Part shown: piece by piece, positions 4,663 through 21,492 of the stretch | Layout: each line of letters opens with the position of its first letter | How positions within the stretch are numbered: the stretch's first letter is position 1 | NCBI GenBank assembly: GCA_030123565.1 | Contig: CP126122.1 | Coordinates: 2,928,800 to 2,992,799, forward strand | DNA: 64,000 nucleotides | Origin: Nitrospira sp. | GTDB lineage: Bacteria > Nitrospirota > Nitrospiria > Nitrospirales > Nitrospiraceae | Direction: 5' to 3' | Made by a program: the position numbers and the translations under genes | Notes under the pieces: model-generated | What the model was told of the DNA's origin: nothing | The model's database searches: none | What the model saw: the letters and a program-made list of their open reading frames with translations, nothing else

Positions 4663-5553
4663 ATGCCGATACCATACGAGACTCACCTTATGCTCGCGTT
4701 GGACTTGGTCAAGCTCACTCCGTTGATGCAACGCACCACCGGGATTCCCGAGTTCAGGATCGGGCTCATCGACGGGCCGGTCATGACGCGACATCCGGAT
4801 CTCTCGAGTCAACGATTTCTTGAGATTTCAGGTCACGGGGGCGGTTCATGTATTCGGGCGGCGAGCACCGCATGCCTGCATGGAACCTTTGTCGCCGGTG
4901 TCTTATCTGCAAAGCGGGATTCTCCCGCACCGGCTATTTGCCCCGATTGTACAGTTCTGATCCGCCCTATTTTTACCGAGACGACGGCCGACCGGGAACA
5001 GCTGCCCGGCGCAACGCCCGCGGAACTAGCCACTGCGATCTTAGAGTGCCTTGATGCAGGCGCACGAGTGATCAACCTGAGTCTTGCCCTTGTGCAACCT
5101 TCCAGCACAGGAGAGCGGACTTTGACGGAAGCACTGGATCAGGCAATCAGGCGTGGCGTGTTCATCGTGGCGGCGGCGGGCAATCAAGGCACCATTGGAG
5201 GTTCCGCCATCACCCGGCATCCGTGGGTCATCCCAGTCGTGGCTTGTGACCTCCGTGGTCGGCCGATGCAGGAATCGAATCTGGGCAACTCGATCGGCAC
5301 GCGAGGGTTGAGCGCACCCGGTGACGCCATCACCAGTTTGAGCACGGAAGGAGCTCCACTCACGCTCAGAGGAACGAGCATCGCCGTGCCTTTTGTGACG
5401 GGGACCATCGCCCTATTGTGGTCGGCTTTTCCAAAGGCGACCCCGGCGCAAGTGAAGGTTGCGATCACACAAGCGGCAGCGCCCAGACGAACATCGCTGG
5501 TGCCGCCGCTATTGAACGCCTGGGCGGCTTATCAGTTCCTGGCAACAGCATAG
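4663..5553 (+). CDS. PatA/PatG-type subtilisin-like (S8) protease
   Basis: This 296-aa serine protease has the S8 triad: Asp in LIDGPV (about residue 38), His in CLHGTFVAG and Ser in RGTSIAVPF, with the oxyanion Asn in AAAGNQG. The DGPV form of the Asp motif and the short single-domain build resemble the proteases that mature cyanobactins (PatA removes the leader, PatG macrocyclises). There is no signal peptide, so it probably acts in the cytosol on the precursor peptides encoded downstream. GAGGA abuts the first ATG; an ATG at 4690 is the alternative start. It opens a plus-strand gene series that runs to about 10152. Confidence 0.88.
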   Translation: MPIPYETHLMLALDLVKLTPLMQRTTGIPEFRIGLIDGPVMTRHPDLSSQRFLEISGHGGGSCIRAASTACLHGTFVAGVLSAKRDSPAPAICPDCTVLIRPIFTETTADREQLPGATPAELATAILECLDAGARVINLSLALVQPSSTGERTLTEALDQAIRRGVFIVAAAGNQGTIGGSAITRHPWVIPVVACDLRGRPMQESNLGNSIGTRGLSAPGDAITSLSTEGAPLTLRGTSIAVPFVTGTIALLWSAFPKATPAQVKVAITQAAAPRRTSLVPPLLNAWAAYQFLATA

Positions 5554-5570
5554 ATCAGGAGGTGGTGTCG

Positions 5571-5789
5571 ATGAAATCAAAGGAGCCCACAGCGATTCGG
5601 AGGGAGGGCCGCCCTCAGGCGCGATACAAGGTACGCCTTCCCGGCTTCATTCTCCACGAAGACGTGGGTCTCGGGACGATCGTGAAGCGAGTCACCTCGG
5701 CCTTCGGCGTGAGGCCATGTGGCGGTTGCGAACAACGGGCCGCTGCGCTGAATCGGTGGCTCGTATTTATCAGTAGGCACCCACAGTGA
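5571..5789 (+). CDS. Small protein with a PCGGC-x2-RAAALN motif
   Basis: This is a 72-aa basic protein that begins at an ATG behind AGGAGG (5556-5561). The central part reads GLGTIVKRVTSAFG and is followed by PCGGCEQRAAALNRW. The two cysteines in CGGC could bind metal or form a disulfide. It sits 17 bases after the protease gene and 21 before the PatG-like gene, so it is almost certainly cotranscribed with them. I know similar CGGC-xx-R-xxx-LN small proteins only as uncharacterised. It could be a helper of peptide maturation or a second substrate class. Confidence 0.65.
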   Translation: MKSKEPTAIRREGRPQARYKVRLPGFILHEDVGLGTIVKRVTSAFGVRPCGGCEQRAAALNRWLVFISRHPQ

Positions 5790-5810
5790 CATAAGTAAGA
5801 AGGAGGGACC

Positions 5811-6734
5811 ATGAATGAACAAGAAACGAAAGGCCAATCAACCAGTCAAGCCGTGGCGGACCGCGAGGGTTCCCCTGTGACTCCCTCCCAGGACAATACC
5901 GGCGTGGCTCCGCCAGCCGGAATGGCGCCTTGCCCGACTTGTTTCGGCGGACCGTGGACTCTGCCTCCCTCCTTTGTGTATGCCATCGGCCATATCGAAG
6001 GGCCGCGTTTTCCGAACCTCGCGGTGGAAAAAGAATACGCTCAGGCGGCCGCCCGGACAGACACAGCCGGCAAAACCGACCAACAGACGTTCCACGCCGT
6101 CCTCTCCAAGCGGGAACACCGTTATCTCGTCCGCCAGCTCTGTTGGGTGCTGAGCATCCAGGGGTTGGATTCCTATCTGCTGCGCCCGCGTGATCCGGCG
6201 GACATTGATCTGCTGGTGGAAGCAATCCGACCCCAGCCAAGTCCGATGGACATTGATGTGGTCATCGGGCTGCGCGGCCCCATCGCGCCGCCGGAATTGT
6301 GCAATGGGCTCATGGTGCCGATCGTCGCCTTCGACCAAATTTATTCTTTTGACCGAGATTCACTGATCAAAGCCATGCCCAAGCCGGAGAAGATGACTCC
6401 CAAGCAGTTCGCGCCGGCCGCAGAAGAGCTGTTCGCCCGCATCATGCAGATGACCGACAACGCCGGCGCCACCGACGAGCACCGCGCCTGGAATTATCTG
6501 GCGAATAGCTATCCCGCGATCTATGCCAAGGCGGCGGAAGAATTTGCAAGAGATTTTTCTCTGACGGCGGTCGAGGCACTGCCTTCCCTGAGGGGCACGC
6601 GGAAGATCGTCGATTGCATCTTCGCCTACACCAACCGCAACACGGACTTTACGGAGAAGTTTGTTGTCCGCTGCGATGTGACCGAGGAGTTTCCGTTCCT
6701 GGTAACAAAGCTGTCACCGTACTACGACCGTTAA
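5811..6734 (+). CDS. PatG C-terminal-like protein of a cyanobactin-type system
   Basis: This 307-aa soluble protein starts behind AAGGAGGG. After a flexible N-terminus with CPTC (about residue 41), it has FVYAIGHIEG, FPNLAVEKEYAQA and a conserved end, VTEEFPFLVTKLSPYYDR. This pattern matches, as far as I recall, the C-terminal domain of PatA/PatG cyanobactin proteins, whose role is not settled. Here it is a separate gene beside the subtilisin, where cyanobactin systems usually fuse the two. Its last 45 bases recur twice downstream, ahead of precursor-type sequence. No heterocyclase or oxidase gene is in the locus. Confidence 0.72.
   Translation: MNEQETKGQSTSQAVADREGSPVTPSQDNTGVAPPAGMAPCPTCFGGPWTLPPSFVYAIGHIEGPRFPNLAVEKEYAQAAARTDTAGKTDQQTFHAVLSKREHRYLVRQLCWVLSIQGLDSYLLRPRDPADIDLLVEAIRPQPSPMDIDVVIGLRGPIAPPELCNGLMVPIVAFDQIYSFDRDSLIKAMPKPEKMTPKQFAPAAEELFARIMQMTDNAGATDEHRAWNYLANSYPAIYAKAAEEFARDFSLTAVEALPSLRGTRKIVDCIFAYTNRNTDFTEKFVVRCDVTEEFPFLVTKLSPYYDR
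6690..6734 (+). repeat. Tail repeat T1 (3' end of the PatG-like gene)
   Basis: This is the first of three copies of a 45-base segment encoding FPFLVTKLSPYYDR. The other copies are at 7400-7444 and 8020-8064. Similarity continues past the stop through the ribosome-binding site and into the start of the next precursor gene. The duplicated unit is therefore the gene end plus one precursor gene. Confidence 0.8.
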
Positions 6735-6762
6735 GCTGAGAATGGGATAGGAGGGACGGACC

Positions 6763-7335
6763 ATGAATCTACCACGATTTACCGCAGAGGCCTCGCTCTC
6801 CAAGGCGCACGGGCAGTACCGGACCAGCCGACATACGGTCAATCCATCCGCGCAAACGGTTGGCCCGATCTGGCCAGCTCTGGAGCAGGAGCAGGAGGGG
6901 GAAGTGATCCACGTCCACGGCTGCCCGGCCGGCTGCATCGCGGTAGGCGAGCAGCCCAATATCACTTGCGTTTGCATTCCACCGGGAGGTGCCGGAGGTG
7001 GAGGCGAAGACCTGCCCCCTGGTGGACGACCGGATGATGGCGGGCCTTACGGCAAAGGCATAGAAACACTTGAAGAACGTATGAAACGTATGCGTCCACC
7101 GGGTCGCTACTGTAAACCCTTGGACTTTCCTGGAGGACGAGAAGCCCGGGATAAAGCAGAGCTAGATTGTGCGAAGCGAAGTAAGGGCAAAAAGAATCTT
7201 CTAACGCAGCTTGTATGCCGCGACCATCCGGACGGAACCGTCAGCTCAGGCTGTTGTTACTTTTCTTTCACAAAAGACGGCAGGTTTAAAGATCCCATAA
7301 TTTGCTATCACGCCGAGGAGGTGCCGCCCACGTGA
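6763..7335 (+). CDS. RiPP precursor peptide 1
   Basis: This 190-aa protein starts behind GGAGG. Its N-terminus has the family leader PRFTAEASLSK, followed by SAQTVGPIWPA about 30 residues in. A cysteine-containing segment (HGCPAGC and TCVC), a glycine/proline-rich linker and a longer cysteine-dotted C-terminus follow. The leader is shared with the genes at 7472, 8380 and 9811, while the rest differs strongly. That split between a constant leader and a variable core is typical of RiPP precursors. The product structure and cleavage site cannot be read from the sequence. At 190 aa it is long for a RiPP. Confidence 0.7.
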   Translation: MNLPRFTAEASLSKAHGQYRTSRHTVNPSAQTVGPIWPALEQEQEGEVIHVHGCPAGCIAVGEQPNITCVCIPPGGAGGGGEDLPPGGRPDDGGPYGKGIETLEERMKRMRPPGRYCKPLDFPGGREARDKAELDCAKRSKGKKNLLTQLVCRDHPDGTVSSGCCYFSFTKDGRFKDPIICYHAEEVPPT

Positions 7336-7399
7336 GAAGTGGCAGGCAATGCTTCAGGCGTGGCGTCTTGGTAATTCAGAGCAGGTTTTGCTCCCGCGT

Positions 7400-7444
7400 A
7401 TCCTATTCCTAGTGACGAAACTGTCGCCGTACTATGACCGTTAC
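7400..7444 (+). repeat. Tail repeat T2
   Basis: This second copy of the PatG-like gene end encodes LFLVTKLSPYYDRY. It lies 710 bp after T1 and directly before the ribosome-binding site of precursor 2. The stop codon has changed (TTAA to TTAC), so it is a non-coding duplication scar. Confidence 0.75.
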
Positions 7445-7471
7445 GGTGAGGATTGGATAGGAGGAATGACC

Positions 7472-7999
7472 ATGAATATGCCACGATTTACCGCAGAGGC
7501 CGTACTTTACAAAACGAGCGGGCATTACCGAACCGGTAGACAAGCAATCAATTTATCGGCCGAGATGATTCGACCGATACATCCGGCGAGGGAGGTGATC
7601 GAGATTCACAGTTGCCCACCCGGCTGGAGCGATATTGGCGGAACCTGCTGGCCCGATCCTTTAACGGAGCCGGGAGGAGGCAGTAGTGAGCCTGGTACGC
7701 CTGGCGTGCCGGGCGAGACCGGTGAGGGCGGTAGACCGGGTGGCGGTGGTGGTAACGGTGGTGTCCCGCTTGATAAGGATGCACCTATACCAGAGTTAGG
7801 TAACTGTAGTGCTAGGCAGATACAATCCAAAGCCGCGACGCCATGCCAGAAAAAAATAGAGGAGGACCTGATGAATAATGTTAAAAATCGTCACTATTTT
7901 GAATGCACGGGAAAAAGGAGGGGTAGGGTGCAGCACCCAAAGATGCAATGCTGTCAGCAAAAGGGTGACGACGTTATCGTCTGTGACGACTTGAATTAG
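7472..7999 (+). CDS. RiPP precursor peptide 2
   Basis: This 175-aa protein starts at the ATG behind GGATAGGAGGA. Its leader is MNMPRFTAEAVLYKTSGHYR, then INLSAEMIRPIHPA, parallel to precursor 1. A short segment with two cysteines (HSCPPGWSDIGGTCWPD) is followed by a collagen-like Gly/Pro stretch (about residues 68-98) and a basic C-terminus with CCQQKGDDVIVC. GC content falls in the C-terminal part compared with the neighbours. Its upstream flank matches that of precursor 1, so it arose by tandem duplication. The family assignment is inference from the shared leader. Confidence 0.7.
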   Translation: MNMPRFTAEAVLYKTSGHYRTGRQAINLSAEMIRPIHPAREVIEIHSCPPGWSDIGGTCWPDPLTEPGGGSSEPGTPGVPGETGEGGRPGGGGGNGGVPLDKDAPIPELGNCSARQIQSKAATPCQKKIEEDLMNNVKNRHYFECTGKRRGRVQHPKMQCCQQKGDDVIVCDDLN

Positions 8000-8577: not shown

Positions 8578-9608
8578 TGTTGAGAGTTGGCCCCCCGCAT
8601 GGGCTACAGTCACGCGCCATGACAAGGGGGGATCGAATGCGATTGATCACGACGAAGGAACTGAGCACCTTGCGCATTGCCACACGGCATCACCACACCA
8701 TCAACAGCCGGCTGGCGATCTTACGCTCTGCTGAGGAGCATGGCTTCAAAGGCGCCGCCCGGCGATTCGGACTGGACCGCAAGACCGTCCGGACCTGGCA
8801 CCGCCGTTGGGTGGCCAGTGGGCCCGCCGGATTGGTGCCGCGCCATCCGCTGAAGCGCCGCCGGCGGCTTTCCGAAGAGACCGTACGACGCATCACGCAA
8901 GCCCGCCGCGATCTTGCAGTTTGGGGCGATGCGGACGCGCATCTGGCTTGATCGGGTGCATCGCATTCGGGTAGCGACCGCGACGATCCGCCGGATTTGC
9001 CGGGACCTCGGCTATCCCCCGGTTCGGCGGACCGAGCCGCGGCGCTCCCGCCACCCGATCCTCTTCAGGAAAGAGCACCCCGGCGAGTGTGTGCAGGTCG
9101 ATGTCAAGGAAGTGAAGGTCGCCGGCCAGAAATGTTTTCAATACACGGCCCTCGATGACTGCACGCGGTATCGCGTCTTGCGCCTGTATCCGCGCAAGTA
9201 TCACGGCACCAGTCTCGACTTCTTGGCCACCGTACGACAAACCCTGCCGTTCCCCATTCGGAAAGGTCAGGTCGACAACGGGACCGAATTCCCGCTGGCC
9301 TTTGCTCTGGCCGTGCAAGAAGCCGGCATCCGCCTGCGGTATATCAAGCCGCGCCGGCCCGAACAGAATGGGAAGGTGGAGCGCAGTCATCGCATCGACG
9401 AGGAAGAATTTTGGAGTCGCTCGACGTTTGACGAGTTCACATCCGCGGCTCAGGCGCTGCGCGCCTGGGAGCATCGGTACAACCACGACCGATTTTCCAT
9501 GGCCCTCCACGGCCTCACACCTGCCGAGAAATTGGCGACATTGCTCTCGCCACCGGCACCACCATCACCACCCGCACCATGCACGCACACGGGGGCCACT
9601 GCTTGACA
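8578..9608 (+). mobile_element. IS481-family insertion sequence
   Basis: This 1,031-bp element has imperfect terminal inverted repeats: TGTTGAGAGTTGGCCCCC on the left and, read inward from the right, TGTCAAGCAGTGGCCCCC. The TGT...ACA ends are typical of the family. It carries one transposase gene on the plus strand. I found no clear target-site duplication. The flanking reading frame of precursor 3 is continuous across the element. Confidence 0.85.
8637..9606 (+). pseudogene. IS481-type transposase with an internal frameshift
   Basis: The N-terminal part (8637-8951, AAGGGGGG before the ATG) has a helix-turn-helix (GAARRFGLDRKTVRTWHRRW). The C-terminal part lies in the next frame (from about 8914) and has the rve/DDE core: Asp in VQVDVKEV, Asp in VDNGTEF and Glu in NGKVERSHR. 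The two frames join smoothly as RRDLQFGAMRT if one base is dropped near 8911. IS481 transposases are normally a single frame of about 320 aa, so this copy is probably inactive. A programmed shift is possible but not usual for the family. Confidence 0.8.
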
Positions 9609-10525: not shown

Positions 10526-10546
10526 CTGTAACTCAATAGGTTACAG
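10526..10546. promoter_or_regulatory. Candidate HigA operator
   Basis: CTGTAAC and GTTACAG form a perfect 7-bp inverted repeat around seven bases, directly ahead of higB. HigA antitoxins repress their own operon through such a palindrome. The right arm reaches the upstream GTG (10546), which favours the GTG at 10555 as the true start. Confidence 0.6.
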
Positions 10547-10554
10547 TGAGTCTC

Positions 10555-10833
10555 GTGATCCGCAGGTTCAAGCACAAAGGTTTAGGCCGATTTTTCGAGA
10601 CCGGCAATAAATCAGGTATCCAGGTACAGCACGCGGAGCGGCTTCGCCTCATCCTAGCCCAATTGAACGCGGCCACCGTGCCACAAGATATGGCACTCCC
10701 CGGATTGGATCTCCATCCACTAAAGGGTGATCGCAAGGGCGAATGGGCTGTTTCTGTCAGCGGAAACTGGCGGATCACGTTTCGATTTGTCGGCAAAGAC
10801 GCGGATGCCGTTGATTACGAGGATTATCATTAG
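10555..10833 (+). CDS. higB: HigB-type toxin of a type II toxin-antitoxin system
   Basis: This 92-aa RelE/ParE-fold protein is expected to cleave ribosome-bound mRNA. Its N-terminus IRRFKHKGLGRFFETG and the core LDLHPLKGDRKGEWAVSVSGNWRITF are characteristic of HigB. The GTG at 10555 fits the family N-terminus, while the GTG at 10546 would overlap the operator. The toxin gene precedes the antitoxin gene, the usual higBA order, with 12 bases between them. Confidence 0.9.
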   Translation: MIRRFKHKGLGRFFETGNKSGIQVQHAERLRLILAQLNAATVPQDMALPGLDLHPLKGDRKGEWAVSVSGNWRITFRFVGKDADAVDYEDYH

Positions 10834-10845
10834 TGAGGTCCTATC

Positions 10846-11130
10846 ATGCGTATGCACAACCCCCCTCACCCCGGTGAAATTATCAAAAACCTGTGCCTGA
10901 CCCCTCTCGGTGTCAGTGTCACCCAAGCAGCTCAAGCATTGGGAATCAGCCGTAAAACCCTATCCGCCATTCTCAACGGCCGCGCTGGGATTAGCCCTGA
11001 GATGGCCATCCGCTTGTCCATGGCATTTGGCACTTCTGCTGAGAGCTGGCTCAATCAGCAAACCCAGTATGACCTGTGGCACGCTGAGCAGCGCCGCAAA
11101 CGACTTCGTGTCGTCAAACTTGCGGTGTAA
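10846..11130 (+). CDS. higA: HigA-type antitoxin, Xre-family
   Basis: This 94-aa protein starts [20 protein letters not shown], the HigA signature, and has a helix-turn-helix ([21 protein letters not shown]). It would bind and neutralise HigB and repress the operon, probably at 10526-10546. A GAGG lies about eight bases before the ATG. The length is normal and no damage is visible. Confidence 0.92.
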
Positions 11131-12857: not shown

Positions 12858-13928
12858 TTACTCGCCGAACGACTTGGACTCCCTCACATAGGCCAGCGCT
12901 TCCTTGGCCGACAGGGCGACCGACTCCGATACAGTTGCGCCTGATGTTGCAAGCGCGTCCAGCATCGCCAGAAAGTCTTTCTTTTGGGAGGGTGTGATTC
13001 GATTATAGTTCGCAAAGCCCACGAATCGATGGATACCCCATTTTCTCACCTCCGGATCGAGATCCTTCCGCTTCAGCAGCGTCAGCGCATAGTCGGCGAA
13101 CCCCTTGTCGGACCCGCTCAAGGCGCGCAAGGCGCTGAGCCGCACTTCCATCGGTTGCTGAGGGTCCGCCACCATGTTCCGCAGGCGGGGGTGACTGTCC
13201 GCATCGATACCGAGCGCCAAGGCGGCTGCCGCCCTCACCTTCGCCTCTCCGGCATCGAGATAGGGCCGAATCGCGCTCGCATGGTTGCCGGCCCCTGCGA
13301 TGTCCAGCAATTGGATCGCCTCATCCGCAGCGATCAAGGCTTCCTTAGGGTTCTCGAGCCCCTTCTCAACGAGTCTGAGGGCCTGCGCATCCCGCATCGG
13401 CACGAGGAAGCGGAAGGCGGCGACACGCACCGCCCCATCATCGTCCTGCAACAGATTTCCGGCCACCTCGTGCATTTCCGCCAGCAACTCGGACGAATGC
13501 GGCAATCGGACTCGTTGGGACAGGTCCGACAGCAACTTGGCCCGCAAACCGGCCCCTCCGTCCTTCGGATTCCTCAGCACGTTCAATTCCTGCCGGATCA
13601 CGTCCTTGGTGAGCGGCAGCTTCTTGGCCGCCGCCCATCGCAACTCATCATCTTCATCGCGGTTGGAGATGACCTCCAACAGTCGGCCGAGGACCTGCTT
13701 GTCCGAATTCACGATGTCCTCCAGCGCGCGCAATCGCTGCTCGCGCGTCCGCGCTGCGTCCAGAAATAATTGGACCCGTTCGTGAAGCCGCGCCTTCAGG
13801 CTCTCCATGTCGAACCCCGGTCTGGCGTCATCGGCTGCCGCAGCCCACCCTGTGGAGAGTGTACCGTACATCAGCAGCACGAGGAAGATGCCGAGCCACC
13901 CTGTCCTGTGCTTTGTCGCCGAGCACAT
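12858..13928 (-). CDS. Exported HEAT-repeat protein
   Basis: This 356-aa protein has an N-terminal signal sequence (hydrophobic GIFLVLLMYGTLSTGWAAA, residues 13-31), so it is probably periplasmic. The mature part is made of helical HEAT-like repeats, for example DDGAVRVAAFRFLVPMRDA, AKVRAAAALALGIDADS and MEVRLSALRALSGSD. HEAT arrays are protein-binding scaffolds and no catalytic motif is visible. It ends the minus-strand pair that begins with the hemopexin-tyrosinase gene (18 bases between them), so it may assist or interact with that copper protein. Confidence 0.75.
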   Translation of the reverse strand: MCSATKHRTGWLGIFLVLLMYGTLSTGWAAAADDARPGFDMESLKARLHERVQLFLDAARTREQRLRALEDIVNSDKQVLGRLLEVISNRDEDDELRWAAAKKLPLTKDVIRQELNVLRNPKDGGAGLRAKLLSDLSQRVRLPHSSELLAEMHEVAGNLLQDDDGAVRVAAFRFLVPMRDAQALRLVEKGLENPKEALIAADEAIQLLDIAGAGNHASAIRPYLDAGEAKVRAAAALALGIDADSHPRLRNMVADPQQPMEVRLSALRALSGSDKGFADYALTLLKRKDLDPEVRKWGIHRFVGFANYNRITPSQKKDFLAMLDALATSGATVSESVALSAKEALAYVRESKSFGE

Positions 13929-13946: not shown

Positions 13947-16229
13947 TCAGTAAGGCACATCGTCGTAGGCGTACCCAAGCCCGTCCTGGGGTCGATGCTT
14001 GCCCAGGTAATCGATCACATCCCGCACCCGCACGGCGGTCGCTCCGGCTGGCCAAAGATTGCCGACGGATGACGACGGGAATGTCCGCGGCACCATCGGC
14101 CGTCCGGCTGTGACATTCTCTCCCGTGACGGGATCAAGCAAATCTGCCGCGCTGGCTTGAGGCACCGGCCGTTCGCCCCGTGCGTCGGGGCCTGAAGGCC
14201 CGGCTGTGCCGTCCCACGGCCACATCGTATCGTCGGCGAACGATCCCCGCCACCAGTCGGTGACTCCGGCGGCATCCCATCTTCCAGTGTTATCGAAGTG
14301 GGCCGGCGCCGGGAAGGTGAGACTTCCGGCAACGGATACCCCATGCCTGCCGTGACGCTGTTGCCAAAACGCCCATTGGCGATCCACTTGCGAGTGCAGC
14401 AGATAGAACAGCGGATCGGCCGCCGACCGATTCGGATTCACCGAATGGCCGAACCCGCAGTTCCACGCATGGGCAAGGTCGTGAGATTCCTGTTCGACCC
14501 GCGCACTGAACGTATCGTTCAAGGTTTGGCCGGGGCTTCCTGTTTGTGGACCGAAATCGGCGAACGACACGAGGCCCGTGGGGCCGGTGAGCGTGCGAAA
14601 CGGGAGACTGCTCGCCGGGGCCACGGTTTGGTCCCACCGCTGCCGCCGTAACTGCCCGGCTGCATAGCGCAAGTCCGTCCTCCATCCGTTCAGCGGATTC
14701 GACAGGGCGAACAGGGGTTCCGCCACCGGCCCGCTGCCGCCCGCCCCAGCCCCCATGAAATCTTGAATGAAGACATTCGGCGCGGCATCGTCCCAGTTCC
14801 AATAGGGAATCGTGACGCTGGGGTCGATCGCCTGTAGCGCCCTCTCCACCTGGGTCAGAAACGCCCGGTGCCACGGCAGGAATCCAGGCTGGTGATGGGC
14901 CTGATCGCGATCCATCACCGTGACCGCCAGCCGATGCGTTTCCTGAAAGATGAAATATTCGCCGCGGTTGCGCAGCTCTTTCATCGCGCGGAGAAAGCGA
15001 TCCCGCTCCGGCGCAGTCAAGGCGTTCGCATTCTTTCGGATTCGCACCATCAACGATTTCTTGCCGACGACGGGGCCGGCCGCGGTAGTCTCATGCACCT
15101 CGATCACGGCATCCTTGTCGGTCGTGCTGGGCCGGCCGAACTTTCCGGCGATCACAAACGACTTCCAGCTGCTGTCGGCCGAAAGCGTGAGGGGCAACGT
15201 ATCTGCGGTGGCGGTCGTATTCGGAGGCCAAGGCGTTTGAAACGCATCGAACAGGAGGTCGCCGGCGGAAACTCCGGCAACCGGCGGATCATTGGTCAAG
15301 ACGACTGAAAGATCGGGTCCTCCCCACGTGCCGGGCTTGATCCTCGCTCGACTGAACGTCGGCGCCCAGGTCACATAGTCATCCGTCTCGGCCGCCGTCT
15401 GGTTGATTTCCACTTCCACCTGCGCCCGCAACAGTCCCGGCCAATTTCCTGCGATGAGGGCGGGATAGTTCAAGCCCCCCTCACTACGATCGTCCCCGCG
15501 GTCGGCCTCGACTCCATACCGCATATATTGATTACCCTTGAAGAAATAAATGACCGACTTCCCCTCGATCTTGTCCGGCCAGGCCACGGCCCCGTCCACC
15601 CCGTCGGGAAATTTGAAGTTCGGCCAATTGCCCGCAATCGGCCTGGGGTAGCCGGGGTCGGCGCGGTGATTCTTCACGTCAAACCGGATGTACTGATTCC
15701 CTCTGAAGAAATAGGCGACGGTGCGGCCGTTCCTCGGGACCGGCCACACGACTACGGCATCGACCCGATCGGTCCAGATGCCGGGCCACTTGAGGGCGAT
15801 CGGTTGCGGATAGGGCGTTCCGGCGCCGTCTGCAGCATCCGCCCGATCGGCCGTGACATCGTATCGCATGAACCGGTTGCCTTTGAAAAAGTAGGCGACG
15901 GTTTTTGGTTCGCCGCCATGGGGCGGCGGAGCCGGCCAAAATACCGCCGCATCGATATCCTCCGTGAAGAGTCCCGGCCAATTCCCCTGGATGGGGCGGG
16001 GATAGGGATTGCCCTGGTCGTCTCTCTCGTCCACCCGGTCGCTCGCGACATCATAGCGTGTGTATTCGTTCCCCTGGAGAAAGTAGACTTTCCCATTGTT
16101 CCAGAGGACTGGGACAAGCTTGTGCGAGCCCCCTATCTGTGCGAGGGCTTCATCGCCCCCGCACACACCCACAGCCAACACCATTCCAAGAAGGATCTGA
16201 GACCATCCTGTCACGGTGAGTGTTTTCAT
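13947..16229 (-). CDS. Secreted tyrosinase-type copper protein with a hemopexin propeller
   Basis: This 760-aa protein starts at an ATG with GAGG just upstream, followed by a signal peptide (ILLGMVLAVGVCGGDEALA). Four hemopexin repeats come first (VYFLQGNEYTRYDV, VAYFFKGNRFMRYDV, VAYFFRGNQYIRFDV, VIYFFKGNQYMRYGV), one full four-bladed propeller. A tyrosinase domain follows. CuA ligands lie in ETHRLA and HHQPGFLPWHRAFL. CuB ligands lie in HDLAHAWNCGFGH and DPLFYLLHSQVDRQW. Tyrosinases oxidise phenols to quinones; the substrate here is unknown. The promoter is probably sigma54-dependent (16352-16367). Confidence 0.88.
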   Translation of the reverse strand: MKTLTVTGWSQILLGMVLAVGVCGGDEALAQIGGSHKLVPVLWNNGKVYFLQGNEYTRYDVASDRVDERDDQGNPYPRPIQGNWPGLFTEDIDAAVFWPAPPPHGGEPKTVAYFFKGNRFMRYDVTADRADAADGAGTPYPQPIALKWPGIWTDRVDAVVVWPVPRNGRTVAYFFRGNQYIRFDVKNHRADPGYPRPIAGNWPNFKFPDGVDGAVAWPDKIEGKSVIYFFKGNQYMRYGVEADRGDDRSEGGLNYPALIAGNWPGLLRAQVEVEINQTAAETDDYVTWAPTFSRARIKPGTWGGPDLSVVLTNDPPVAGVSAGDLLFDAFQTPWPPNTTATADTLPLTLSADSSWKSFVIAGKFGRPSTTDKDAVIEVHETTAAGPVVGKKSLMVRIRKNANALTAPERDRFLRAMKELRNRGEYFIFQETHRLAVTVMDRDQAHHQPGFLPWHRAFLTQVERALQAIDPSVTIPYWNWDDAAPNVFIQDFMGAGAGGSGPVAEPLFALSNPLNGWRTDLRYAAGQLRRQRWDQTVAPASSLPFRTLTGPTGLVSFADFGPQTGSPGQTLNDTFSARVEQESHDLAHAWNCGFGHSVNPNRSAADPLFYLLHSQVDRQWAFWQQRHGRHGVSVAGSLTFPAPAHFDNTGRWDAAGVTDWWRGSFADDTMWPWDGTAGPSGPDARGERPVPQASAADLLDPVTGENVTAGRPMVPRTFPSSSVGNLWPAGATAVRVRDVIDYLGKHRPQDGLGYAYDDVPY

Positions 16230-16351: not shown

Positions 16352-16367
16352 CGCAAGAGATGTTCCT
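16352..16367 (-). promoter_or_regulatory. Candidate sigma54 promoter of the hemopexin-tyrosinase gene
   Basis: The minus strand reads AGGAACATCTCTTGCG, with GG-N10-GC spacing and a good TTGC -12 element. The predicted transcript start is near 16341, about 110 bases before the ATG. The nearest GTATC-N6-GATAC site is centred 130 bp upstream of the -24. Confidence 0.5.
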
Positions 16368-16487: not shown

Positions 16488-16628
16488 GTATCGCATCCGA
16501 TACTAGGCGTATCGAAGCGGATACGAATACGTACAATTCTCCGCAATCGTTTTTCCGCCATCGACTTCCGCCCCGAACGTGATCTCTTGGATGTGTTTCT
16601 CCCGTTGTGGCCGTATCTCAATCGATAC
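16488..16628. promoter_or_regulatory. Three copies of GTATC-N6-GATAC between divergent sigma54 promoters
   Basis: Perfect copies lie at 16488-16503, 16509-16524 and 16613-16628. The first two are 21 bp apart (two helical turns) and the third is 104 bp further (about ten turns), so all face the same side of the DNA. One copy lies about 130 bp upstream of each flanking sigma54 promoter. Enhancer sites for a sigma54 activator encoded elsewhere are the best reading. No gene is convincing in 16230-16847. Confidence 0.6.
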
Positions 16629-16750: not shown

Positions 16751-16766
16751 GGGTTCGACCTTTGCA
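16751..16766 (+). promoter_or_regulatory. Candidate sigma54 promoter of the three-gene block
   Basis: The plus strand reads GGGTTCGACCTTTGCA, with GG-N10-GC spacing and a perfect TTGCA. The expected start is near 16777, about 70 bases before the first ATG. The third GTATC-N6-GATAC site is centred 132 bp upstream of the -24. Confidence 0.5.
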
Positions 16767-16847: not shown

Positions 16848-18410
16848 ATGGCAGATGTCTTACCCAGCCAACTTGCCAATTCCATCATGGGCAAGCTCTA
16901 TGACGTGCTGACCAATGGAGACGATACCGTCCCCAAGTCGGAAGATAACTTCTTCACCTGGTGCACCCCCGGGATTCCGATCGAGGCGAACGACTTCGAT
17001 TTTCTCTCTCAGGGCTTTACCGGCGTGGTCAAAAAAGCAGCCCTGCAAGAGATGGCCGCCCCGGCGGGCGGCGGCCAACCGGCCGGCGAGGGTCAACCGG
17101 CGACGCCCGCTCCCCCAGCCCTGACACAGGAGCTGATGGATAAGCTGCTCGCACAGGACGTGGGGAAGCTCTACATGCAGGCGGAGAACTTCGCCCGTCT
17201 GGTCGACTTCGTCCCGGACGTCTCGGGGATCAATGAGCGCTTTTCACGTTTGAATATCATGAACAACGAGGGCGGGCTGTCCGATCGCTACGAATACACG
17301 TTGCGCATGAGTCAAGTGATGGAGAGCGAGCTGCCGGAAGAGACGAAAAAGAAAATCGCCAAGTTTCGCGAATTGCTGAGCGTCAAGAAGATGAAGAAGA
17401 ATCTGATCGACGACAGCGAGACGGAGGTGATGGAGCCGAGTCCGCTCGTCGTCACCTACAACGAGAAGCTGAAGGCCTATGAAGATGCGGCGCTCGAATA
17501 CAATGCCCGCCGCATCGACGCCCTCGCGGGCGACAATCCCAAAGCCGTTCACTATTGGGCCGTCAATGCGAGCACCCTGCGGAATCGCGTCAAGTCCGCG
17601 ATGAACGATTGGGTGACCAACGGCTATAAGAACGACTATGAGGCCATCGCGGCATTCATCGATCAGGTCATGCAGCGGGACATGACCCTCTTGAAGGCGG
17701 AATATCGTGACGCCCTCGAGAAGGCCAAGCTGACGGGGCTGGCCTCGGGATCGGACTTCTATTATACGTCGGTCGTCCCCGGCAACTTCGTGAAAGCCTC
17801 CGGCTGGACGCAGTTCTCGTTCGGATCGACGGACATTTCCCGCTATTCCCAATCCTCGCACAGCAAGTGGTCGGCCGGGGGCGGGTTCAACATCGGCCTC
17901 TTCTCGATCGGAGGAAGAGGGGGAGGCAGCAAGAGCGAATACAAAGGCTCGTTCGATGCCTCGAATTTCAAGCTCGCATTTTCCATCACGCAGGTGCCGA
18001 TCGTGCGGCCATGGCTCAAATCGGCCTATCTCGCGAGCAAGGCCTGGCGCTTCGATCAAAACAATCCCGAGGCCAAGGGGCAGATGCTGAGCGACGGCGG
18101 CAAGCCGCCGAAGGGCATGATCCCCGCCTATCCCACCGCGATGGTCTGCGTCAAAGACTTGGAACTCACCATGAGCAACACCAGCGCCATGAGCGAGTTC
18201 ACCAGCAGCAGCATCAGCGGAGGCGGGTTTGTGGGCTATGGTCCCTTCGCCATCGGCGGGAATTACTCGAAGGGAAAGAGCACCAGCAAGTCCAATTACC
18301 ATTGGGACGGGCAGACCATGAAAGTCGACGGCATGCAGGTGATCGGGTTCAAGTGCCACATCCTTCCCAAAGCACCTGACCCGCTGCCGACGATCACCAA
18401 GTGGGTGTAG
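16848..18410 (+). CDS. Unknown protein, first gene of the three-gene block
   Basis: This 520-aa protein starts behind AAGGAGGG. It has no signal peptide or transmembrane segment. An alanine/proline linker (about residues 66-95) separates a short N-terminus from a helical middle. The C-terminal part is rich in Gly and Ser (WSAGGGFNIGLFSIGGRGGGSKSEYKG; SSSISGGGFVGYGPFAIGGNYSKG) and probably beta-structured. The segment VVPGNFVKASGWTQFSFGSTDIS and the end VIGFKCHILPKAPDP match the next gene's GYSPSNTIESTGWNKFTLSDSEVS and ILAFVCKKLPLCPNPDP. The two are therefore distant paralogues. I recognise no family. Sigma54 control shared with the tyrosinase suggests a common process. Confidence 0.75.
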   Translation: MADVLPSQLANSIMGKLYDVLTNGDDTVPKSEDNFFTWCTPGIPIEANDFDFLSQGFTGVVKKAALQEMAAPAGGGQPAGEGQPATPAPPALTQELMDKLLAQDVGKLYMQAENFARLVDFVPDVSGINERFSRLNIMNNEGGLSDRYEYTLRMSQVMESELPEETKKKIAKFRELLSVKKMKKNLIDDSETEVMEPSPLVVTYNEKLKAYEDAALEYNARRIDALAGDNPKAVHYWAVNASTLRNRVKSAMNDWVTNGYKNDYEAIAAFIDQVMQRDMTLLKAEYRDALEKAKLTGLASGSDFYYTSVVPGNFVKASGWTQFSFGSTDISRYSQSSHSKWSAGGGFNIGLFSIGGRGGGSKSEYKGSFDASNFKLAFSITQVPIVRPWLKSAYLASKAWRFDQNNPEAKGQMLSDGGKPPKGMIPAYPTAMVCVKDLELTMSNTSAMSEFTSSSISGGGFVGYGPFAIGGNYSKGKSTSKSNYHWDGQTMKVDGMQVIGFKCHILPKAPDPLPTITKWV

Positions 18411-18453
18411 ACAGAGCGGTCGCCTGCGACGCTCGATGCACCAACCACCAGAC

Positions 18454-18480
18454 GCCTGCCGCGCCTCAAGCGCGGCAGGC
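18454..18480 (+). terminator. Intercistronic hairpin
   Basis: GCCTGCCGCGC and GCGCGGCAGGC pair around CTCAA, between the first and second genes of the block. No T-run follows, so it may only stabilise or partly terminate the message. Confidence 0.5.
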
Positions 18481-18497
18481 CGCACCGTGAGGACATT

Positions 18498-19994
18498 ATG
18501 GACTCGGAAGTCGCGCTGGCACTGATGACGAAGGTGAAGTTGGTATTCGAGCGGGACGGCAATTTCCTGAGCTTTCCGCTGTCCACCATCGCCTATAAGA
18601 AAGACGATCTGGGTTTCGTGCAGGGAGAGTTGACGGAAGAGCGTCTGGTCAAACTCAAGGACTTTTCGCTGCTCGTGAACCAGATTCCCGACGGGACCCT
18701 GTGGCCCTGGACGGAGGACCGATGCCTCTGGGATGTCTACTACGAGGTGTTGAAGCTGGCGACCCTGGCGCCGTCGACGCAGCCGGGAACGCCGGAGCAG
18801 GCCGCGGCATTCGCGGCAGCACACCGGTTCTTGAAGGAACCGCTCCCGGACGGGTCGGAGAGGGACTCGCAAGCGGCGCTTACTTATCGACAATACGAGG
18901 ACCGTTGGCTGCAGCTGCAGGCCAAGTATAAATCAGACAGTTTCACCGCCCAAAGCCTCACCGATCCCGTCGCGAAACAACGGTGGGACACGGTGGACGA
19001 GCCCCTCTTGAAGCAGCAGTTGCTCGACCTGGAGCGGGATTGGGCGACAAAAGGCTACAAGGCGGAGGTGGAGCAGGCCAGACGGCTCGATGAGCAACGG
19101 GCCAATTCCTCGCCGACGATGATCTGGGAGGAGTGGAAGAAACAGTTTATCCCCGACATCGTGAAGTGGACCGATGTCCGGTTCGCACAGGATTTCTGTC
19201 CGACCGGCTATTCTCCCTCCAATACGATCGAATCCACCGGATGGAACAAGTTCACCCTCTCAGACAGCGAGGTTTCGGGCCTCCTTAAGCAGGCGCCGCC
19301 CGACCTCAAGAATCGGCTCGGGTCTGACCAGATCGACCTCGACATCGCTTCGCTCTCTTTCGAAGTCTGTTCGGTGAAAGTCGAACGGGCCTGGTTCGTT
19401 TCAGACCTGTTCCGCTCGCGGTTCTGGAAAATGCCCGACAACTCCCTGCTCTCGAGCGGGCAATTCCCCTTGAGCGGAAAATGTCCCTCCTATGTGGTCG
19501 CCCTCGTCCTGGCCCGCAACCTCGAGGTCAAGCTGGCGCCCCAATCGTCTAAAAACACCCAGAACTTGGGACGACTCCAAACGATGCAGGCCCTCTCCTT
19601 GGGTGCGTTTAAAATCGTGGCCCCGCGGGCGTCGGCCCCCGCCGGTCAACCGATGGTGCTTCATGCCGCCCAACCGATCGTTGCCGCGACCTACAGGCCC
19701 GTCGCTCCCGTCGCGAGACCGGCGGCGCGCATGCAACCTCTGCGGGCCTCGCCGCAGATGATGGCAGCCAGGCCGGCGCCACCTGCCACAATGATGGTCA
19801 GACCACAGTCCGCCACCATACTCCGGATGCAAGAAAAGGTTGTGGTGGCGCTGCCCCAGCCGGCGCCCCCGACACCGGCTCCAACACCTCCGCCGGCCGC
19901 TCCGACCGCGCCCAACGACGAGATTTACATCCTGGCCTTTGTGTGCAAGAAGCTGCCGCTCTGCCCGAATCCCGATCCTGCGTTGCAATGGTAA
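18498..19994 (+). CDS. Unknown protein, second gene of the block
   Basis: This 498-aa soluble protein has no signal peptide. It has a helical N-terminal half with many Trp and charged residues. The middle section (STGWNKFTLSDSEVS; CPSYVVALVLARNLEVKL) parallels the preceding gene. A low-complexity Ala/Pro/Met-rich linker spans about residues 375-475, and the ending ILAFVCKKLPLCPNPDP also parallels its neighbour. The linker suggests two folded parts on a tether. The shared C-terminal pattern with gene one suggests they form a complex or bind the same partner. The function is unknown. Confidence 0.72.
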   Translation: MDSEVALALMTKVKLVFERDGNFLSFPLSTIAYKKDDLGFVQGELTEERLVKLKDFSLLVNQIPDGTLWPWTEDRCLWDVYYEVLKLATLAPSTQPGTPEQAAAFAAAHRFLKEPLPDGSERDSQAALTYRQYEDRWLQLQAKYKSDSFTAQSLTDPVAKQRWDTVDEPLLKQQLLDLERDWATKGYKAEVEQARRLDEQRANSSPTMIWEEWKKQFIPDIVKWTDVRFAQDFCPTGYSPSNTIESTGWNKFTLSDSEVSGLLKQAPPDLKNRLGSDQIDLDIASLSFEVCSVKVERAWFVSDLFRSRFWKMPDNSLLSSGQFPLSGKCPSYVVALVLARNLEVKLAPQSSKNTQNLGRLQTMQALSLGAFKIVAPRASAPAGQPMVLHAAQPIVAATYRPVAPVARPAARMQPLRASPQMMAARPAPPATMMVRPQSATILRMQEKVVVALPQPAPPTPAPTPPPAAPTAPNDEIYILAFVCKKLPLCPNPDPALQW

Positions 19995-20226
19995 TCGAGC
20001 ATTCCCGGCACGATCGTTTACTGGTCGATCTCGTCGCTTCACGACGCAACCCTCCTGTCAGGCGATACCTTCATCAACCGTTCCTGTCGGCTGTGCAGCG
20101 CTCCATAGGCTACAACACCCCCCCGTCCCGGATGACGTCGAGTTGAAGTTGAGCGGAGAACATGCCGTGAATCGCGCTTGCTCGGCGGGAAGCGCCGCGA
20201 CTACAATTTCAGGGAGCGAGGGGCCC

Positions 20227-21492
20227 ATGACTCCCGAAGAAGCGCGGATCCATTACAACTTTCTGCTCACCCTTTGCATCCGCAAGGCCGAGTCCTTCGG
20301 TCCGATGGCGTTTGCCTTTATCAAGGACCATAGTTTCCCCACGATAGGACTCACCGCGGAAGAGCAGTTCAACCTCTTCATGGCCATTACCGACGCCTTC
20401 GCCGACGAACCCAAGCGATACGGCCACAAACTCGACTGTCTCCACAAGGCCCTGGACCTGTTGCCGAAGACCCGGTTCTACGATGCGGCCCTCGCCCGGC
20501 AGATCCATCAGGAGATCCAGCGTCTCACGACCGAACTCGACTATTACAACGCCGCCTTGAAACCGGAACGACCAGGAGGCTCGCCGGAAGCGGCGATGCG
20601 CCGGCGGATCATCATCGAAACCGACCTGCCGGACTACTTTCTTTCTATCGCCCAGCAGCGGGCCGCCGACTACTACCAGCGGAAATATCGCCTGTCCACG
20701 GAGGCCAAGATCGCCCAGCATTTTGCCGGCCGAACCAGGACGTTCGAACCGGACAATCCGGCTGTGCACAAAGAATTTCCCGGCGCCTGCGCGCCCTTCG
20801 TGGCGGCCAGAACCGGAGCCTGGCACGTGATGCTTCCGTTCGATCTCAAGATCAGCCGCTCACCGGACGATCCGCTCGATGCCGGCGTCCGTATCTGGTA
20901 TGCCAAAACGGGATACTCCTTTCCGTTGCGGTACGAAATGGGACGGCTGGTCAGCTACTACGACGACCAGGTGCTGGAGTTGGAGATGACGGACCCGCAG
21001 CTGCTCTTCGTTTCCGTCTCGCCGCTGAAGGAGCGAAACCTGGGAACGGTGGATCGGCCGGTACCGCCGGACATGCCGTTCGAGATCGGCTTGCCGCGCG
21101 CATATCTCGAAGGGACCAACACGCTCGGGCCCTACGTGCAGATCGGATGCAATATCAAGGTCTGGTTCGACGCGGCCACCGTCTCACTCCTCATCCAAGG
21201 CGCGCCGGATCTCCACGAATATGGACTGCAAGGCGGGGCAGGCCTGTTGACGAGGACCTATGCGACCGAGAAAACGCCGGCCTACGCGGGAGCCGGGAGC
21301 CGACCCTGGCAACAGGGACTGAGCTTCAACTTTATCAATATGCACCTGCAGTTGTTGCCGGACACCACGACGGCCCTGGTTCCGGCAAACACTCCGATCT
21401 TTTCCCTCTATCCGGTGGCTGCCCGAGGAACCTATCAGTTGGAAGACGCGCGTTTACTGACTCCTGCCGAGCCCTACACAACGTCGCAATAG
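20227..21492 (+). CDS. Unknown protein, third gene of the block
   Basis: This 421-aa protein is read from the ATG at 20227 behind GCGAGGGG; an upstream extension overlapping the previous gene is judged non-coding. The N-terminal 150 residues look helical (RIHYNFLLTLCIRKAESFGPMAF). The C-terminal half is mixed, with many Tyr and Pro and a segment YVQIGCNIKVWFDAATVSLLIQGAPD. No signal peptide or membrane span is present. It is probably transcribed with the two genes before it. I recognise no family. Confidence 0.68.
   Translation: MTPEEARIHYNFLLTLCIRKAESFGPMAFAFIKDHSFPTIGLTAEEQFNLFMAITDAFADEPKRYGHKLDCLHKALDLLPKTRFYDAALARQIHQEIQRLTTELDYYNAALKPERPGGSPEAAMRRRIIIETDLPDYFLSIAQQRAADYYQRKYRLSTEAKIAQHFAGRTRTFEPDNPAVHKEFPGACAPFVAARTGAWHVMLPFDLKISRSPDDPLDAGVRIWYAKTGYSFPLRYEMGRLVSYYDDQVLELEMTDPQLLFVSVSPLKERNLGTVDRPVPPDMPFEIGLPRAYLEGTNTLGPYVQIGCNIKVWFDAATVSLLIQGAPDLHEYGLQGGAGLLTRTYATEKTPAYAGAGSRPWQQGLSFNFINMHLQLLPDTTTALVPANTPIFSLYPVAARGTYQLEDARLLTPAEPYTTSQ

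What the first reader, a model, noticed from the sequence alone, without database searches (positions are those of the whole stretch)
16848..21492. Three-gene unknown block co-regulated with a hemopexin-tyrosinase
The first two proteins share distant motifs (SGWTQFSFGS / TGWNKFTLSD; VIGFKCHILPKAPDP / ILAFVCKKLPLCPNPDP), so one probably arose from the other. None has a signal peptide or a family I know. Joint sigma54 control with a secreted copper enzyme suggests they make, load or respond to something linked to phenol or quinone chemistry.
Basis: partly seen in the sequence, partly recalled or inferred. Interest (0 to 1): 0.62.

Follow-up and report, generated by a model that had tools for sequence, protein, structure and literature searches.

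The report
Two-protein hemopexin-linked modular secreted system
Two unknown sister genes that always travel as a pair, and that have jumped between very different bacteria and into at least one archaeal genome assembly, are switched on together with a secreted protein whose propeller-shaped hemopexin head stays the same while its enzyme tail is swapped, so they look like parts of an undescribed, mix-and-match machine that works outside the cell.

Summary
Genes A (16848-18410) and B (18498-19994) are true paralogues (HHalign 4e-38) of no family in Pfam, NCBIfam, PADLOC, PHROGs or PDB sequences. They form a fixed pair: B follows A in 18 of 18 readable loci of a genome-collection scan (Nitrospirota, Proteobacteria, cyanobacteria, Bacteroidota, Methanosarcina). 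The third gene, C (20227-21492), is unrelated: 30 of 245 Nitrospirota genomes have it, and in the ten C loci read it stands apart from A-B. Tyrosinase is not the partner (4 of 10 A-B genomes, 15 of 35 without). The partner is the hemopexin head: in 245 Nitrospirota genomes A-B occurs in 5 and hemopexin in 5, 4 shared. The head is 74-79% identical but its tail differs: tyrosinase here, a two-CxxCH domain in eight others. B carries swappable middle domains; a hairpin separates A from B. I propose a horizontally mobile, modular extracellular system, most likely a targeted antagonistic weapon with A as bulk scaffold or pore and B as targeting subunit (0.4). The anatomy is shown; the function is inferred.

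The parts
16848..18410 (+). gene A, 520 aa, conserved core protein: N-terminal part, helical middle, beta/Gly-Ser-rich C-terminal part
   Evidence: 62% mean identity over 17 loci
18498..19994 (+). gene B, 498 aa, paralogue of A: conserved 1-345, variable Pro/Ala-rich middle (site of inserted domains in other loci), conserved C-terminal tail
18454..18480 (+). 11-bp perfect hairpin in the A-B gap, no T-run, ending 17 nt before the B start
   Evidence: 0 of 100 shuffles reach its score; position-conserved in other A-B gaps
16751..16766 (+). sigma54-type -24/-12 site of A (GG-N10-GC, 9 of 12 consensus positions), 97 nt before the ATG
16352..16367 (-). sigma54-type -24/-12 site of the hemopexin-tyrosinase gene (8 of 12)
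   Evidence: shuffle p 0.196 on its own; supported only by its counterparts in relatives
16488..16503 (.). enhancer-like palindrome GTATC-N6-GATAC, copy 1
   Evidence: (3 in window, 0.03 expected)
16509..16524 (.). enhancer-like palindrome, copy 2, 21 bp after copy 1
16613..16628 (.). enhancer-like palindrome, copy 3
13947..16229 (-). secreted hemopexin-tyrosinase fusion gene, divergent from A (MKTL start; the ORF is open to 16295)
   Evidence: PF00264 1.2e-30, PF00045 3.1e-20; signal peptide by eye
15426..16136 (-). hemopexin head, the constant part (aa 32-268)
   Evidence: 74-79% identical to eight other proteins whose tails are only 17-20% identical to this one
14355..14963 (-). tyrosinase domain, the exchanged tail in this lineage
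20227..21492 (+). gene C, 421 aa, an unrelated gene conserved on its own in Nitrospirota; not part of the system

Best explanation
A and B are the core of a horizontally mobile, modular extracellular system. A is the conserved bulk subunit (scaffold or pore-like oligomer). B is its less abundant paralogue, which shows a target-binding domain in its variable middle. A co-regulated carrier protein with a constant head (hemopexin propeller in Nitrospirota; hemopexin or peptidoglycan-binding modules elsewhere) brings an interchangeable enzyme: tyrosinase here, a two-CxxCH domain, murein-hydrolase-like or HExxH-type tails elsewhere. An NtrC-type activator binding GTATC-N6-GATAC turns on A-B and the carrier together from sigma54 promoters. 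The most likely use is targeted antagonism against neighbouring cells. Shown: pairing, paralogy, co-occurrence, module exchange, shared promoter and enhancer signals, hairpin. Inferred: A:B stoichiometry, the activator, the physical complex, and the antagonistic role.
For: Pair: 18 of 18 loci with readable sequence after A (of 19; L030 ends inside A), plus window, G006, G057 and G094, G108 (G108 is the L015 genome). A and B distances correlate, r 0.83, 0 of 5000 permutations. Hemopexin: A in 5 and hemopexin in 5 of the same 245 Nitrospirota genomes, 4 shared (Fisher 1.7e-7); in another list 8 of 10 A+ against 0 of 35 A-, three of them (G057, G284, G286) unlinked. Tail exchange; in L020 a hemopexin + VgrG3-like C domain (2.3e-50) beside a second hemopexin protein. 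PG_binding_1 genes beside other family members: L022, L031, L115, L103, weak in L028. B inserts: CarboxypepD_reg in L110 (4.5e-19) and L029 (4.7e-12), PLAT in L107 (1.6e-4, just below cut-off). Allele swap in one chromosomal slot, G094. Promoters and enhancers. A-B hairpin: 13 of 16 gaps against 4 of 55 other gaps. Extracytoplasmic role: S. meliloti copies with signal-peptide-like starts and a lipoprotein-like copy in L108 (by eye). Patchy tree.
Against: No known toxin, pore-former or delivery family matches by sequence; the best Foldseek PDB match of B (XaxA) has E 0.15 and the A model is poor. No immunity gene was identified. Canonical A and B have no visible signal peptide and no export system is linked; contractile-sheath genes are missing in 14 of 23 A+ genomes. 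Five A+ genomes (G279, G281, G282, G283, G285) and all seven genomes that hold only divergent relatives of A (G294, G316, G419, G592, G624, G727, G791) have no hemopexin, and several have no hydrolase beside A-B either. The sigma54-like site is missing before A in L022, L019, L026, L028 and G094. A promoter-pattern hit before an SGNH-type gene in G057 could instead point to exopolysaccharide.
Confidence: 0.4

Rival explanations
1. A-B and the hemopexin proteins are structural and enzymatic parts of the extracellular matrix or floc, under the sigma54 control typical of some exopolysaccharide programmes (recalled); tyrosinase or haem tails cross-link matrix components and B's inserted domains bind glycans.
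For: Shared sigma54/enhancer promoter; a further motif hit 70 nt before an SGNH-type membrane protein gene in G057; adhesion-like beta-sandwich inserts in B.
Against: Murein-hydrolase-like neighbours do not fit a matrix role; the SGNH gene was found in one genome only; A-B is rare and patchy while matrix is general (5 of 245).
Confidence: 0.25
2. A-B is cargo released by cell lysis or a type-10-like route, and the peptidoglycan hydrolases beside it are release factors rather than payload.
For: Canonical A, B and the PG_binding/CHAP and GH19-like neighbours show no signal peptide by eye.
Against: Most A-B loci have no hydrolase neighbour; the Nitrospirota carriers have signal-peptide-like starts; no holin-like gene was looked for systematically.
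Confidence: 0.12
3. One reading: the genes make, load or respond to something in phenol or quinone chemistry with the tyrosinase.
For: Divergent, co-regulated arrangement in the window.
Against: Eight other Nitrospirota hemopexin proteins have a two-CxxCH tail instead; tyrosinase 4 of 10 A+ against 15 of 35 A-; C is an unrelated gene.
Confidence: 0.04

Closest known systems
Polymorphic toxins (general class, recalled)
   Same: constant carrier part with exchangeable enzymatic tails; patchy distribution; allele replacement at one locus
   Different: constant part is a hemopexin propeller, not a known trafficking domain; no immunity gene identified; comes with the A-B pair
Hemopexin (PF00045) proteins listed as predicted toxins in eCIS loci (PMC8213781, passages seen)
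   Same: bacterial hemopexin domains next to putative effectors
   Different: no contractile-sheath gene seen beside A-B, and 14 of 23 A+ genomes have none at all
XaxAB/YaxAB two-component alpha pore-forming toxins
   Same: two tandem genes (recalled for XaxAB); long helical hairpin in the B model; XaxA is the top, non-significant Foldseek row (E 0.15)
   Different: no sequence relationship found; extra beta parts, conserved proline-rich tail, inserted domains in B; the fold match may be a coiled-coil coincidence
Operons with intercistronic stem-loops that set subunit ratios, e.g. cellulosome (PMC4423207, PMC10311766; abstract starts in a search listing only)
   Same: hairpin between genes of a presumed heteromultimer
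   Different: no RNA data here

Membership tests
A and B as one homologous family | significant profile similarity across the proteins | tested here: met
   HHalign 4.2e-38 over 366 columns
A-B-C unit | C related to or always linked with A-B | tested here: not met
   no similarity; 30 of 245 genomes carry C; 5 of 245 in the same draw carry A; G006 lacks C beside A-B; G057 has it 1.6 Mb away
Tyrosinase-associated (caddie-like or linked) proteins | co-occurrence with tyrosinase | tested here: not met
   4 of 10 A+ against 15 of 35 A-
Hemopexin-linked system | co-occurrence of A-B with hemopexin proteins | tested here: met
   met within Nitrospirota and in G278, G280; not in G279, G281, G282, G283, G285 nor in the seven genomes with divergent relatives only
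Sigma54 regulon | GG-N10-GC promoter plus upstream enhancer palindrome before both genes | tested here: met
   (A: 12 of 14 distinct Nitrospirota genomes at 8 or more of 12; hemopexin genes 8 of 8 evaluable; control 36 of 277); no transcription data
Polymorphic toxins | constant N-terminal part, variable C-terminal enzymatic part | tested here: met
   head 74-79%, tail 17-20% identity between the window protein and eight others
Polymorphic toxins | cognate immunity gene next to the variable tail | tested here: inconclusive
   no candidate stood out; a HEAT-repeat gene (12858-13928) follows the window gene; not compared systematically
XaxAB-type alpha pore-forming toxins | XaxA/XaxB fold | tested here: inconclusive
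   Foldseek E 0.15; VIA rows cover mainly the helical hairpin 94-204; A model pLDDT 46.6
XaxAB-type alpha pore-forming toxins | membrane pore formation | not testable with these tools
   needs liposome or cell assay
eCIS or T6SS cargo | contractile sheath (PF04984) in the same genome | tested here: not met
   at E 0.001, PF04984 is absent in 14 of 23 A+ genomes and present in 21 of 24 A- relatives; T6SS was not searched apart from this sheath family

The most novel reading that the evidence does not exclude
A-B is a new class of mobile two-protein delivery scaffold, shared by bacteria and archaea, in which A polymerises or inserts, B aims by means of exchangeable binding domains, and a co-regulated hemopexin or peptidoglycan-binding carrier supplies exchangeable enzymes: a tail-less, phage-independent counterpart of injection systems.
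Probability: 0.2. Interest if true: 0.88.

Novelty: categorically new. Interest (0 to 1): 0.66.

Why it matters
The pair is nearly invariant in layout across phyla and has no named family, yet its partners are swapped like cartridges and, in Nitrospirota, share one regulatory code. If the reading is right, it opens a testable class of modular extracellular machines in nitrifiers, cyanobacteria and others, and gives bacterial hemopexin domains a role as carrier heads. Even if the antagonism reading is wrong, the co-occurrence and promoter data define a coherent unknown regulon with at least three recurrent members. 'Categorically new' is chosen because no known family or system matched in the libraries searched; it is not a claim that the mechanism is proven.

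Tried and rejected
Tyrosinase as partner: rejected. C as third component: rejected. Phage or viral origin: no hits in phages or viral contigs (single-protein patterns only, so weak). eCIS dependence: rejected. Plasmid records: three with A relatives, one with a B relative, none with C. Fold search of B: nothing at E 0.001 or better in PDB or viral models; VIA rows mainly on the helical hairpin. The A model (pLDDT 46.6) was too poor to search. Whole-window counting of sigma54 sites gave nothing and misled me at first; comparison across genomes reversed that. I looked for repeated 9-mers shared between the promoters and found only scattered ones; the palindromes were seen by eye in that output and then tested. 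Papers: searches found no description of this pair; the library holds open-access papers only. I recall similar hypothetical proteins in filamentous fungi; no tool here could test that.

Superseded results: (L024 B and L107 A read in wrong frames) is replaced (some B starts misassigned); one search stopped on a script error.

Caveats on counts: L015 and G108 are the same genome, so 13 of 16 A-B hairpin gaps is 12 of 15 distinct genomes; that set holds only gaps of 60-200 nt that the simple ORF caller resolved and does not include the window's own gap (that one is). In one search, one further locus (L026) was not evaluated because no B start was found by the script. Control ORFs come from a mechanical caller. 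Related genomes are not independent, so Fisher values are descriptive. L018, L020 and L025 are short MAG contigs whose host may be wrong. The G277 hemopexin is a fragment at a contig end; the G260 hit is a 68-aa frame with a stop. G006's hemopexin-tyrosinase is a broken remnant. The upstream of the G108 hemopexin gene is cut by the contig end and was not counted.
Full report
What was claimed. A three-gene unknown block (16848-21492), the first two proteins related, jointly sigma54-controlled with a divergent hemopexin-tyrosinase gene.

The genes. A (520 aa), B (498 aa) and C (421 aa) are open and correctly placed. The window lies in a 4.6-Mb single-contig Nitrospira-type genome (genus by its nearest named relatives). 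None of the three matches Pfam, NCBIfam, PADLOC, PHROGs or PDB sequences convincingly. A and B are paralogues: HHalign 4.2e-38 over 366 columns. C is a different protein: HHalign of A against C gives probability 0.8%.

C is not part of the unit. 30 of 245 Nitrospirota genomes encode C. In the ten C loci read it stands apart from A-B, among varied, mostly housekeeping-type genes judged by eye. G057 has both, 1.6 Mb apart; the sister genome G006 has A-B but no C.

A-B is a mobile pair. Only 3 of 61 relatives, own genome included, carry A. One genome-collection scan gave 19 loci at 51-88% identity: Nitrospirota, an Acetobacteraceae MAG, Xanthomonas, Pseudoalteromonas, Dyadobacter, a Bacteroidales MAG, two cyanobacteria and a Methanosarcina MAG (82.8-kb contig with archaeal-looking topoisomerase VI genes by eye). 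B follows A on the same strand in 18 of 18 readable cases. The tree mixes phyla. More distant relatives occur as tandem arrays in rhizobial plasmids and cyanobacteria; profile searches hit 6 of 339 genomes of the cyanobacterial set and 3 of 369 of the set around Xanthomonas, centre genomes included. A and B distances co-vary (r 0.83, 0 of 5000 permutations, 17 pairs).

Anatomy. A is the more conserved (62% mean identity), B less so (39%): B 1-345 43%, middle 23%, tail 64%. The B model is fair (pLDDT 69; core mostly 75-94) with a long helical hairpin and beta strands; the A model is poor. No significant fold match. In several loci B's middle or end holds an extra domain: CarboxypepD_reg (L110 4.5e-19, L029 4.7e-12), PLAT (L107 1.6e-4, just below the curated cut-off, after the conserved tail), and a long unassigned insert in G094 (NPCBM only 0.23). 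Between A and B sits a hairpin with different sequence but conserved position: 16 of 20 loci had stems reached by 5 or fewer of 100 shuffles, and 13 of 16 A-B gaps against 4 of 55 other same-strand gaps have stems of 11 bp or more. Most lack a T-run. By analogy with stem-loops that set subunit ratios (PMC4423207, PMC10311766, listing abstracts only) I infer unequal A:B amounts.

The true partner. In the same draw of 245 Nitrospirota genomes, A occurs in G000, G006, G057, G094, G108 and hemopexin PF00045 in G000, G057, G094, G108 and G260 (G260 is a 68-aa frame with a stop): Fisher 1.7e-7. G006 holds a broken remnant. In a second list hemopexin is in 8 of 10 A+ Nitrospirota (one a contig-end fragment) and 0 of 35 A-. 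In G057, G284, G286 and G108 the hemopexin gene lies far from A-B or on another contig. Tyrosinase shows no such pattern: 4 of 10 against 15 of 35. The hemopexin head of the window protein is 74-79% identical to those of eight other proteins, while the tails share 17-20%; all eight tails have two CxxCH motifs and are 74-95% identical to each other. Outside Nitrospirota, L018 has a hemopexin protein with a HExxH-like tail (by eye), and L020 has hemopexin + VgrG3-like C (PF21277, 2.3e-50) and hemopexin + a His-rich tail that I read as M15/M74-like by eye. Other loci have PG_binding_1 genes beside family members: with CHAP-like (L022, L115) or GH19-like (L103) tails below the curated cut-offs, L031, and a weak L028; a Peptidase_M74-like gene in L022, a DyP-type peroxidase in L029. 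Hemopexin is absent from five A+ genomes (G279, G281, G282, G283, G285) and from all seven genomes with divergent relatives only, so the hemopexin tie is a Nitrospirota rule with two cases outside. In G094 the same chromosomal slot holds a divergent A-B allele plus an extra 203-aa hemopexin gene, while the hemopexin-CxxCH gene on the other side is retained.

Regulation. Counting alone gave nothing. Across genomes, a GG-N10-GC site scoring 8 or more of 12 lies upstream of A in 12 of 14 distinct Nitrospirota genomes (not L022, not G094) and upstream of 8 of 8 evaluable Nitrospirota hemopexin genes, against 36 of 277 control upstreams (9 or more: 8 of 277). Outside Nitrospirota, 3 of 6 A loci reach 8 (L018, L020, L024). 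The 15-base pattern GGAATNNGTYTTGCT occurs four times in the G057 genome, two of them before A and before the unlinked hemopexin gene; the reversed control pattern gave one hit in 12 genomes; the window's own genome has none, its sites being variants. A third recurrent target is a 146-152-aa protein gene in G057, G284, G286, G281. Palindromes GTATC-N6-GATAC, often in tandem 21 bp apart, precede both genes: three in the window where 0.03 are expected, two before the hemopexin genes of G057, G277, G284, G286, L013, L014; before A in the G057-like lineage only a two-mismatch variant is found. This is the layout of enhancer sites for NtrC-type activators (general knowledge); the window holds three such activator genes by their GAFTGA motif.

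Interpretation. Pairing, tail exchange on a constant head, domain exchange in B, allele replacement, patchy transfer and murein-hydrolase-type neighbours together resemble a modular antagonistic system outside the cell. Signal-peptide-like starts on S. meliloti copies and a lipoprotein-like copy (by eye) support an extracytoplasmic place. The antagonistic role, the complex and the stoichiometry are inferences; a matrix role is the main rival.

Noticed in passing
L149, L159, L163, L148 (site at 1501): A 146-152-aa protein with one hydrophobic N-terminal segment is preceded by the same promoter motif in four Nitrospirota genomes: probable third member of the regulon.
   Followed up: partly
L147, L151, L152, L154, L158, L161: Further hits of the promoter pattern without an assigned target gene, or before genes that I did not examine.
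   Followed up: no
L153 (site at 1501): In G057 the same motif precedes an SGNH-type membrane protein gene, of the kind seen in exopolysaccharide clusters (by eye).
   Followed up: no
window 20227-21492; L042-L051: Gene C is a strongly conserved (55-77%) lone protein of unknown function in 30 of 245 Nitrospirota genomes.
   Followed up: partly
L139 5269-12162: G094 carries a divergent A-B allele in the same chromosomal slot as other Nitrospira, with an extra 203-aa hemopexin gene after B.
   Followed up: partly
L012 10596-13553: S. meliloti T073 plasmid: several TIR-domain genes near three tandem A/B-family genes with signal-peptide-like starts and a radical SAM gene.
   Followed up: no
L029 9884-11527: The Dyadobacter A gene is interrupted by one in-frame TAG.
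   Followed up: no
L008 13437-15347: In the sister genome G006 the hemopexin-tyrosinase gene is a broken remnant while A-B is intact.
   Followed up: partly
window 4663-7999; L008 18635-19501: Subtilisin-like protein, a CPTC-containing protein and small proteins with an FTAE-type start in a row (by eye); related pieces near the G006 locus. Possibly a peptide-maturation cluster.
   Followed up: no
window 10546-11130: HigBA-like toxin-antitoxin pair (by eye).
   Followed up: no
window 8914-9606: Transposase-like remnant (by eye).
   Followed up: no
L103 1152-3620, L104 7069-9552, L105 4023-6614: 822-863-aa cyanobacterial proteins with an A-like C-terminal region; the L103 gene is followed by a PG_binding/GH19-like gene.
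   Followed up: partly
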